In this document: positions 30,672 to 32,147 of the stretch, piece after piece
Layout: every line of letters starts with the position of its first letter
Numbering within the stretch: the first letter of the stretch is position 1
Source of the DNA: Lepidurus packardi
Taxonomy: Eukaryota; Arthropoda; Branchiopoda; Notostraca; Triopsidae
Direction of reading: 5' to 3'
Length of the DNA stretch: 64,000 nucleotides
NCBI GenBank assembly: GCA_023053545.1
Contig: JAKZAN010000007.1
Span: forward strand, 4,836,001 to 4,900,000
Made by a program: the position numbers and the translations under genes
The notes under the pieces: generated by a model
The model's database searches: none
What the model was told of the DNA's origin: nothing
What the model saw: only the letters and a program-made list of their open reading frames with translations

Positions 30672-32147
30672 ATGTCAGAGGCATCTCAGCAAACTGCCGA
30701 AGAAACGAACGATATTCGGCCACAATTCGGAACGAGATTCTTAACTGACCCCCAGAATGTTTTCGAGCATAATGCTTGGTAAGCGAAGACAAATGATCCA
30801 GCAAATCTTTGCACCTTTAATAGGCAAATTCTCATTCTGCGATCATGGAAAGTATACTCGCAAAAAGCCGCCTCTTGGTGTTGCCGATCGGTTTTTAACA
30901 GACATTACGCGAGTGTTTCAGCACAATGTCTGGTATGCTAAGCATGTCTGATATTTATAATCCCATATCGGTCCGTGTTTAGTGCCGTCAAAGACACCTA
31001 AAGCATTGAAATTAATGATAGTACGTTTTTTCCCCAGGGATAATGTAGAATGGGATGTAGAACAGGAAACGGCGGCCAAACAAAAGGTGACCGAAAATTC
31101 TGCCGTATTGGCCAATGCTGAGGAATCGGAGAAGTTTGAAAAGGAAGCCAACAAATTTTGGGACCAGTTCTATGATATTCACCAAAATAAGTAAAAGTAA
31201 TTTGGTTTTACTTAAGTAAATTATAGCTAGTTTGGTTATAGGTTTTTTAAGGACCGCCATTGGCTTTTCACCGAATTTCCCGAACTAGCTCTAGGTCCCA
31301 ATAATTCCAGTTCCTTCAATGAAACGCTCCCGTCATTAGCGAATGCCTTTCAGGGAGCGAGCGCAAAGTTTCGGGTTTTAGAACTCGGCTGTGGGGTAGG
31401 GAACACCGTTTTTCCGCTGATGAAAACCAATCCGAATCCCGAGTTGTTTCTTTATGCCTGCGATTTCTCCTTGACAGCTATTGACATCGTAAAAAACCAC
31501 TCCGAATACAACACAGATAGGTAAAGTAGAATCTTTCCGCTTGTAACCATTCCCAAATTTCTATACATGTTTCAGGTGTCACGCCTTTGTCATGGACTTG
31601 TCACAGGAATGGGACGTTCCCTTTCCACCGAATTCACTGGATGTCGTCATTTTAATTTTCGTACTTTCAGCCATTTCTCCTGACCGGTAACAGTTGCAGT
31701 TGCGTAGATTATTTTAAATCCGTTTTGTAATCGTAGAATGCAAATGGTTATCAATAACGTAGCCAAATTTCTGAAACCTGGAGGAAGAGTACTTTTTCGA
31801 GATTATGGACGCTACGATCTCGCTCAGCTTCGATTTAAGAAAGGCCGGTGCTTAGCTGACAACTTTTACGTGCGCGGAGATGGAACTCGAGTCTATTTTT
31901 TTACCCAAGGTAAACTCTTGTCAACTTGCAAAAATAGAAAACTTGCACTAAAGGGTATAATGTCCTTTTAGAGGAATTAAAAAGCTTTTTTGTCAAAGCC
32001 GGACTTGAAGAAGAGCAGAATTTGGTTGATCGTCGTTTGCAAGTGAACCGAGGCCGTATGATTACCATGTATCGTGTATGGATCCAGTGTAAATATCGCA
32101 AGCCAATGACTGCGGAATCTGGACAGGAGCTTAAAAGTCAAAGTTAA
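30672..32147 (+). CDS. METTL2: tRNA N3-methylcytidine methyltransferase, METTL2/8 family
   Basis: SAM-dependent enzyme that makes m3C32 in tRNA anticodon loops; METTL2 acts in the cytosol and METTL8 in mitochondria. Exons 30672-30778, 31038-31190, 31242-31520, 31576-31686, 31737-31909 and 31972-32147 give 332 aa. The first exon carries the METTL2 signature RPQFGTRFLTDPQNVFEHNAW and exon 2 continues DNVEWDVEQE. The class I methyltransferase fold shows motif I VLELGCGVGNTVFPL, then the acidic YACDFS, DLSQEWDVPF and the family block FLKPGGRVLFRDYGRYDLAQLRF with VRGDGTRVYFFT. The ATG at 30672 fits the family length. A second first-exon candidate (30757/30793-30932) has the same splice phase and is listed separately. 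The gene ends 95 bases from the stop of the convergent RNMT gene. Confidence 0.94.
30757..30932 (+). CDS. Alternative first exon, METTL8-like N-terminus
   Basis: An open frame ending in a GTATGC donor at 30933, in the same phase as exon 1a, so it can splice to exon 2 at 31038. Its 3' half encodes KKPPLGVADRFLTDITRVF then QHNVW. This parallels exon 1a (RFLTDPQNVFEHNAW) and resembles the PLG...LTD...VFEHNMW start of vertebrate METTL8. Possible ATGs are 30757, 30772 and 30793. The resulting N-terminus is rich in Arg/Lys and hydrophobics with no acidic residue before the Asp in the CDHG segment (about residue 30 from the first ATG), like a mitochondrial presequence. The 30757 and 30772 starts lie inside exon 1a in another frame. 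Whether the exon has its own promoter is unknown. Confidence 0.7.

What the first reader, a model, noticed from the sequence alone, without database searches (positions are those of the whole stretch)
30672..31190. One gene may encode METTL2-like and METTL8-like tRNA m3C enzymes by first-exon choice
Seen: exon 1a (30672-30778) and a second open segment (ending 30932) encode parallel sequence (RFLTDPQNVFEHNAW versus RFLTDITRVFQHNVW) with the same donor phase into exon 2. The second has KKPPLG upstream, as in vertebrate METTL8, and a basic, hydrophobic leader that could be a mitochondrial presequence. Established: vertebrates use separate METTL2 and METTL8 genes for cytosolic and mitochondrial tRNAs. 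Inference: this animal covers both compartments with mutually exclusive first exons, and the leader may even begin in another frame inside exon 1a.
Basis: partly seen in the sequence, partly recalled or inferred. Interest (0 to 1): 0.82.

Follow-up and report, generated by a model that had tools for sequence, protein, structure and literature searches.

The report
One gene, two-compartment tRNA methylase
In this crustacean- or insect-like animal one gene probably makes both the cell-body and the mitochondrial version of a tRNA-modifying enzyme, by reading one exon in two different frames and adding a small extra exon, a job that vertebrates split between two genes.

Summary
In detail: the METTL2-type m3C tRNA methyltransferase gene at 30672-32147 has a second coding segment (ending 30932) that parallels the end of exon 1a and has the same donor phase. 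It matches arthropod 'B-type' N-termini at E=2.5e-7 among 2097 window ORFs. Three arthropods list an A-type and a basic-leader B-type protein with identical sequence after exon 1 (3 of 3 pairs).

In relatives the B leader begins as a +1-frame reading of exon 1a's own VFxHNAW codons: 13 of 20 strong B-type proteins show it in full, 5 more start at its second Met. The pattern occurs in 14 of 198 homologues; shuffled N-termini give 0.015. So exon 1a is probably in both mRNAs, read in two frames, with exon 1b added for the mitochondrial form. In the window that leader would start at ATG 30757 or 30772.

No separate METTL8 gene was found; METTL6 is present. Mitochondrial tRNA-Thr and tRNA-Ser(UGA), read from nuclear copies, carry C32. 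Transcripts, localisation and activity are untested; the window leader is a weak presequence by one measure.

The parts
30672..30778 (+). exon 1a, frame 0: cytosolic N-terminus MSEASQQ...RPQFGTRFLTDPQNVFEHNA(W); probably dual coding from 30757
   Evidence: A-type profile 54.8 bits
30757..30778 (+). +1-frame start of the proposed mitochondrial leader (MFSSIML...), overlapping codons NVFEHNA; alternative start ATG at 30772
   Evidence: relatives' B leaders are +1 readings of the same motif
30779..30823 (+). 45-nt stretch, either a mini-intron (GTAAGC...TTTAATAG) or retained leader sequence; both keep the frame
30824..30932 (+). exon 1b, 109 nt as a cassette: ...KYTRKKPPLGVADRFLTDITRVFQHNV(W); donor CTG|GTATGC
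31038..31190 (+). shared exon 2
31242..31520 (+). shared exon 3, with the GCGVGN SAM-binding motif (motif name recalled)
   Evidence: Pfam methyltransferase domains over the joined protein
31576..31686 (+). shared exon 4
31737..31909 (+). shared exon 5
31972..32147 (+). shared exon 6, stop TAA

Best explanation
This is the animal's METTL2-type m3C32 tRNA methyltransferase gene, the only one found in the assembly, and it makes two enzymes. Shown: the exon anatomy, the A/B isoform pair in other arthropods at protein level, and no second METTL2/8-type gene in the searches made. Inferred, cytosolic form: exon 1a is spliced to exon 2 and translated from ATG 30672. Inferred, mitochondrial form: exon 1b is added between exon 1a and exon 2, as a 109-nt cassette (30824-30932) or by using the downstream donor (30779-30932). 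Translation then starts in the +1 frame inside exon 1a, at ATG 30757 or 30772, by leaky scanning, reinitiation or an internal transcription start. The last codons of exon 1a thus encode the conserved VFEHNAW motif in one frame and the start of a mitochondrial leader in the other, and exon 1b supplies a second copy of the motif (VFQHNVW). [quoted passage not shown]
For: The two open isoforms. Exon 1b fits an arthropod B-type profile, E=2.5e-7. Same-species A and B proteins with identical cores, on contigs of equal listed length, in 3 of 3 pairs: Anticarsia, Papilio machaon, Macrobrachium. The +1-reading pattern of VFxHNAW occurs in 14 of 198 homologues (13 strong B-type plus P0118) against 0.015 expected from shuffled N-termini. 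Joint codon test on 13 A/B pairs: runs of 10-16 codons in 10 pairs, 0 of 300 shuffles each; runs of 7 in 2 pairs, 2 and 5 of 300; 1 pair fails, 187 of 300. In the Homarus model the +1 reading covers the upstream RPQFGTRFLKDKK stretch (16 codons, against Cherax A). Through exon 1b, frame 0 stops (TGG TAA if read through; GGA TAA at exon 2 if spliced), while the +1 frame joins exon 2. Own genome: besides this gene only METTL6 and a 39-40%-identity C119 hit with in-frame stops. mt-tRNA-Thr(UGU) and mt-tRNA-Ser(UGA) have C32, mt-tRNA-Pro has U32.
Against: No transcript, ribosome or protein data were seen for this animal. The window leader has net charge +3 to +4 over 30 residues, but its helical moment is low (0.23-0.26), below the 17 listed B-type relatives (0.29-0.63) and no higher than the window's own A form (0.27). 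The measure does not separate the types anyway: 9 A-type relatives score 0.32-0.58. No presequence predictor was available. Exon 1a outscores exon 1b even on the B profile. The +1 reading of VFxHNAW is forced by the A peptide, so its presence in the window alone proves nothing; the evidence is that relatives' B proteins begin with it. The search pattern was derived from the codon table, but only after I had seen some of the leaders. The lepidopteran A peptides are nearly alike, so those pairs are not independent. 2 of 20 strong B-type proteins lack the reading: P0154 looks like a gene model fusing exon A to exon B, P0157 (Gryllus) fits 5 of 7 positions by eye. Amphioxus and leech B-like proteins lack it. 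Many relatives' entries are, by their names, computed gene models. The tRNA sequences come from nuclear copies of mtDNA.
Confidence: 0.74

Rival explanations
1. Two mutually exclusive first exons with separate promoters: exon 1b has its own transcription start upstream of its own ATG (30793), and exon 1a is absent from the mitochondrial mRNA.
For: The frame is open from ATG 30793 with a basic leader MIQQIFAPLIGKF.... Amphioxus and leech B-like proteins do not carry the exon-1a reading, so other layouts exist.
Against: 13 of 20 strong arthropod B-type proteins begin with, or contain in their leader, a +1 reading of exon A, and 5 more start at what corresponds to its second Met.
Confidence: 0.15
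2. Exon 1b is a poison exon: inclusion shifts frame 0 into a stop at the start of exon 2 and lowers the cytosolic enzyme through nonsense-mediated decay; no mitochondrial protein is made.
For: Frame 0 through exon 1b ends at GGA TAA in exon 2, or at TGG TAA if read through.
Against: Exon 1b keeps a protein motif (RKKPxxG, RFLxD, VFxxNxW) in the frame that joins exon 2; relatives' annotations carry it as full-length protein isoforms. The two ideas can both be true.
Confidence: 0.06
3. Exon 1b is a decaying tandem duplicate of the end of exon 1a with no use.
For: The two segments look duplicated, 31 of 53 DNA positions identical; exon 1b scores lower than exon 1a on both profiles; the window leader has a low helical moment.
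Against: Open frame, donor in the right phase, and a better match to the B-type than to the A-type profile, the reverse of exon 1a.
Confidence: 0.05

Closest known systems
Vertebrate METTL2A/B (cytosolic) plus METTL8 (mitochondrial matrix) m3C32 methyltransferases
   Same: Same family and, by inference, the same division of labour; [quoted passage not shown] A METTL8 mRNA isoform without the presequence is also detectable in human cells (same passages).
   Different: Separate genes in vertebrates, where METTL8 is said to have arisen (PMC8980813, passages; a vertebrate-specific METTL2/METTL8 clade is stated in PMC7237682, passages); here one gene with two N-termini.
Zebrafish hars: one gene, cassette exon 2 gives cytoplasmic or mitochondrial HARS
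   Same: One gene serves both compartments by including or skipping an exon; the first start codon runs into a stop when the exon is included (PMC5608375, passages).
   Different: There the mitochondrial start codon lies in the cassette exon; here it is proposed to lie in exon 1a, in another frame, on top of coding sequence.
Arthropod METTL2 isoform pairs in public databases (Anticarsia X1/X2, Papilio machaon X1/X2, Macrobrachium X1/X2)
   Same: Same A-type and B-type N-termini on one core.
   Different: They are listed as isoforms only; no paper on them showed in the listings (several capped).
Dual-coding exons and overlapping reading frames (for example TP53BP1 smORF, PMC10193022, search listing only)
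   Same: One stretch of mRNA read in two frames, reached by alternative starts.
   Different: Here both frames feed into the same enzyme core and differ in its destination.

Membership tests
METTL2/Trm140 m3C tRNA methyltransferases | Full-length similarity to METTL2 proteins | tested here: met
   (isoform B as query): 120 of 7037 hits listed, 47-71% identity over 56-92% of the query; many named METTL2 by their sources
METTL2/Trm140 m3C tRNA methyltransferases | Class I methyltransferase domain | tested here: met
   7 Pfam families over cut-off, PF13489 best
METTL2/Trm140 m3C tRNA methyltransferases | Distinct from METTL6 | tested here: met
   a separate METTL6 gene lies at G000:C2:3553386-3554129; it scores 299 bits against solved METTL6, this gene 217 bits
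METTL2/Trm140 m3C tRNA methyltransferases | m3C32 activity on tRNA | not testable with these tools
   none
METTL8 (vertebrate mitochondrial paralogue) | Separate gene from METTL2 | tested here: not met
   one METTL2/8-type gene found in the assembly; the assembly may be incomplete
METTL8 (vertebrate mitochondrial paralogue) | N-terminal mitochondrial presequence | tested here: inconclusive
   basic leader with low helical moment; no predictor available
[quoted passage not shown]
   of 8 loci scanned, tRNA-Thr(tgt) in 4 and tRNA-Ser(tga) in 5, the same loop letters in each; cloverleaf drawn for L026 only; nuclear copies of mtDNA; methylation itself not testable
Single gene dual-targeted by splicing | Two transcripts from one gene | not testable with these tools
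   no reads held; indirect support from relatives' isoforms
Dual-coding exon | Both frames translated | tested here: inconclusive
   relatives' B proteins begin with the +1 reading; no ribosome or peptide data

The most novel reading that the evidence does not exclude
A dual-coding exon has been kept across Pancrustacea: the codons for a conserved motif of the cytosolic enzyme are read one base out of frame as the start of the mitochondrial presequence of the same enzyme, with a cassette exon restoring the motif and the frame. The vertebrate METTL2/METTL8 pair would then be a later split of an older two-in-one gene.
Probability: 0.62. Interest if true: 0.8.

Novelty: new variant of a known kind. 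Interest (0 to 1): 0.68.

Why it matters
METTL8 is described as vertebrate-born (PMC8980813, passages), which leaves open which enzyme would make mitochondrial m3C32 in other animals. This gives a concrete candidate and a simple test. It would also be an unusual case of long-kept overlapping coding in a nuclear gene where both frames lead into one enzyme, and an example of what a gene may look like before duplication separates its two destinations. Annotation that keeps one isoform per gene would miss the mitochondrial form.

Tried and rejected
Separate METTL8 gene: searched the own genome with both isoforms (only the best candidates are scored by that tool, and the assembly may be incomplete). 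The other hits are METTL6 (C2) and two pieces at 39-40% identity on C119 with in-frame TAA/TAG. Several other methyltransferase hits, mostly on small contigs, also carry in-frame TAA/TAG; a contaminant with another genetic code is a guess that was not tested.

Protein search with the B leader alone gave one candidate and no hit. The third and last search used an alignment of truncated B-type proteins, which favours B-type rows; both listings are capped at 120, so the share of B-type proteins is no estimate of how common they are.

Organism: nuclear copies of mtDNA show I-Q-M-ND2-W-C-Y-COX1-L(taa)-COX2-K-D in L021 (tRNAs; ND2, COX1 and COX2 recognised by eye; a tRNA-Val called inside COX1 was taken as spurious). 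That is the pancrustacean ground pattern (recalled). A core-protein tree of 42 rows did not resolve the place of the window. A tadpole shrimp is a guess from genome size and scaffold number only; one library search on it gave nothing used.

Penaeus A against krill B failed the joint codon test (run of 4, 187 of 300 shuffles). After the tree put P0148 beside the krill, that A protein was tried and gave a run of 8, 3 of 1000 shuffles; this choice was made after the failure.

The M[PRHL][DEG] start used for five crab and lobster-like proteins is loose; P0076 (amphioxus) also fits it. For those five it rests on alignment by eye with Eriocheir and Homarus. The B/A sorting uses profiles built from 18 of the 20 strong B-type proteins, so it is circular for those; the leader pattern is not part of the profiles.

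Library searches: listings were capped (30 of 38, 15 of 23, 25 of 58, 10 of 18 papers shown); one search matched 21,577 papers on loose terms and says nothing.

Searches (Pfam; solved structures) failed because of stop codons in the stretch given; repeated with joined or exact proteins. NCBIfam gave no family over its cut-off.

Full report
What is there. The + strand holds a METTL2-type methyltransferase gene. Exon 1a (30672-30778) joined to five shared exons encodes a 332-residue protein. With isoform B as query, 120 of 7037 hits were listed, at 47-71% identity over 56-92% of the query, many named METTL2 by their sources. A second segment ending at 30932 has the same donor phase, and joined to the same exons also gives an open frame. 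Neighbouring ORFs match an mRNA cap guanine-N7 methyltransferase (- strand) and a FAM210A/B domain (+ strand).

Is the second segment more than chance? A profile of 18 arthropod B-type N-termini, built without the window, finds it at E=2.5e-7 among 2097 six-frame ORFs of the window, better than a profile of 23 A-type N-termini does (27.4 against 20.6 bits). Exon 1a shows the reverse preference (41.0 against 54.8 bits) and outscores exon 1b on both. The next ORF is at E=0.36. The assembly search found exon 1b here only.

What relatives show. Two protein searches listed 198 different homologues (both lists capped at 120, the second biased to B-type by its query). 29 of 198 favour the B profile, 20 of them by more than 15 bits. 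Of these 20, 18 are named by a source and come from Lepidoptera, decapods, krill and a cricket (orders recalled from the genus names); P0109 and P0127 are unnamed. Anticarsia, Papilio machaon and Macrobrachium nipponense each have an A and a B protein on contigs of equal listed length, and everything after exon 1 is identical in 3 of 3 pairs. So these are very probably isoforms of one gene.

The overlap. The B leaders start with residues that are the +1-frame reading of the A isoform's own codons: Anticarsia A NAEEVFKHNAW against B MLRKFLNITR; Papilio A NVDEVFKHNAW against B MWTRSSSIML; Macrobrachium A NVFEHNAW against B MFLNIMH. The pattern forced by VFxHNAW (x = E, K or Q) in the +1 frame occurs in 13 of the 20 strong B-type proteins. 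Five more start at what corresponds, by eye, to the second Met of that reading; P0154 (a model that seems to fuse exon A to exon B) and P0157 (Gryllus) do not show it. Among the other 178 proteins one matches, P0118, of unknown origin. Shuffled N-termini gave 0.015 matches per set of 198. I wrote the pattern after noticing the likeness in some leaders. A joint codon test on 13 A/B pairs (3 same-species, 10 across species) gave runs of 10-16 codons in 10 pairs with 0 of 300 shuffles as long, runs of 7 in 2 pairs (2 and 5 of 300), and one failure, Penaeus A with krill B (187 of 300). The lepidopteran A peptides are nearly alike, so these pairs are not independent. A later-chosen A protein, P0148, gave a run of 8 with the krill B leader (3 of 1000). 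The Homarus B model carries the +1 reading over the upstream RPQFGTRFLKDKK stretch, so exon A is inside that B transcript model.

Reading for the window. ATG 30757 (MFSSIML...) and ATG 30772 lie in exon 1a in the +1 frame, and that frame is open into exon 1b both by reading through 30779-30823 and by a 45-nt mini-intron with an AG at 30823; both keep the frame. The four introns between the shared exons are 50-62 nt (from the coordinates), so 45 nt is short but not absurd. In decapods the residue after the overlap is Asp or Glu, which needs a splice at exon A's donor, so exon B is probably a cassette there (inference). With exon 1b included, frame 0 ends at GGA TAA in exon 2, or at TGG TAA if read through: only the +1 start gives the enzyme. 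How ribosomes reach it is unknown. A short upstream ORF from ATG 30634 ends at 30744, 12 bases before 30757, and would carry ribosomes past ATG 30672; reinitiation is one possibility.

Need for a mitochondrial enzyme. Nuclear copies of mtDNA in the assembly give mt-tRNA-Thr(UGU) in 4 and mt-tRNA-Ser(UGA) in 5 of 8 loci scanned, with C at position 32, while mt-tRNA-Pro has U32 (cloverleaves drawn for L026). These are the two human METTL8 substrates (PMC8752778, passages). METTL6 is present as a separate gene. No other METTL2/8-type gene was found. METTL8 is described as having arisen in vertebrates (PMC8980813, passages).

Weak points. No expression data. The window leader is basic (net +3 to +4) but has a low helical moment, 0.23-0.26, against 0.29-0.63 in 17 B-type relatives; 9 A-type relatives score 0.32-0.58, so the measure does not separate the types. 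The +1 reading is forced by the A peptide, so only its use in relatives is evidence. Many relatives' entries are computed models. The listings showed no paper on a METTL2 gene with two N-termini in invertebrates, but several were capped, only titles and abstract starts were seen, and the library lacks most subscription journals.

Noticed in passing
30634-30744: A 36-codon upstream ORF starts at ATG 30634, overlaps ATG 30672 and ends 12 bases before the +1-frame ATG 30757; it could steer ribosomes to the second start.
   Followed up: partly
G000:C6:697216-704271, G000:C64, C2, C4, C16, C21 and others: Many nuclear copies of mitochondrial DNA (COX1 and cytochrome b hits with in-frame TGA).
   Followed up: partly
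G000:C119, C123, C220, C230, C257: Methyltransferase hits with in-frame TAA/TAG on small contigs; perhaps a contaminant with a ciliate-like code.
   Followed up: no
P0005, P0017 (oysters), P0007 (unnamed, oyster-like), P0138 (hemichordate), P0010, P0012, P0196 (frogs): A-type METTL2 proteins with an in-frame, presequence-like N-terminal extension (by eye): perhaps another way to dual targeting, by alternative initiation.
   Followed up: no
P0118 (unnamed source): An A-like METTL2 protein whose first residues (MYLNTMHG) also fit the +1 reading of VFxHNAW.
   Followed up: no
P0001 (Lutzomyia longipalpis): A 567-residue entry with two nearly identical METTL2 copies in tandem; gene-model fusion or tandem duplication.
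   Followed up: no
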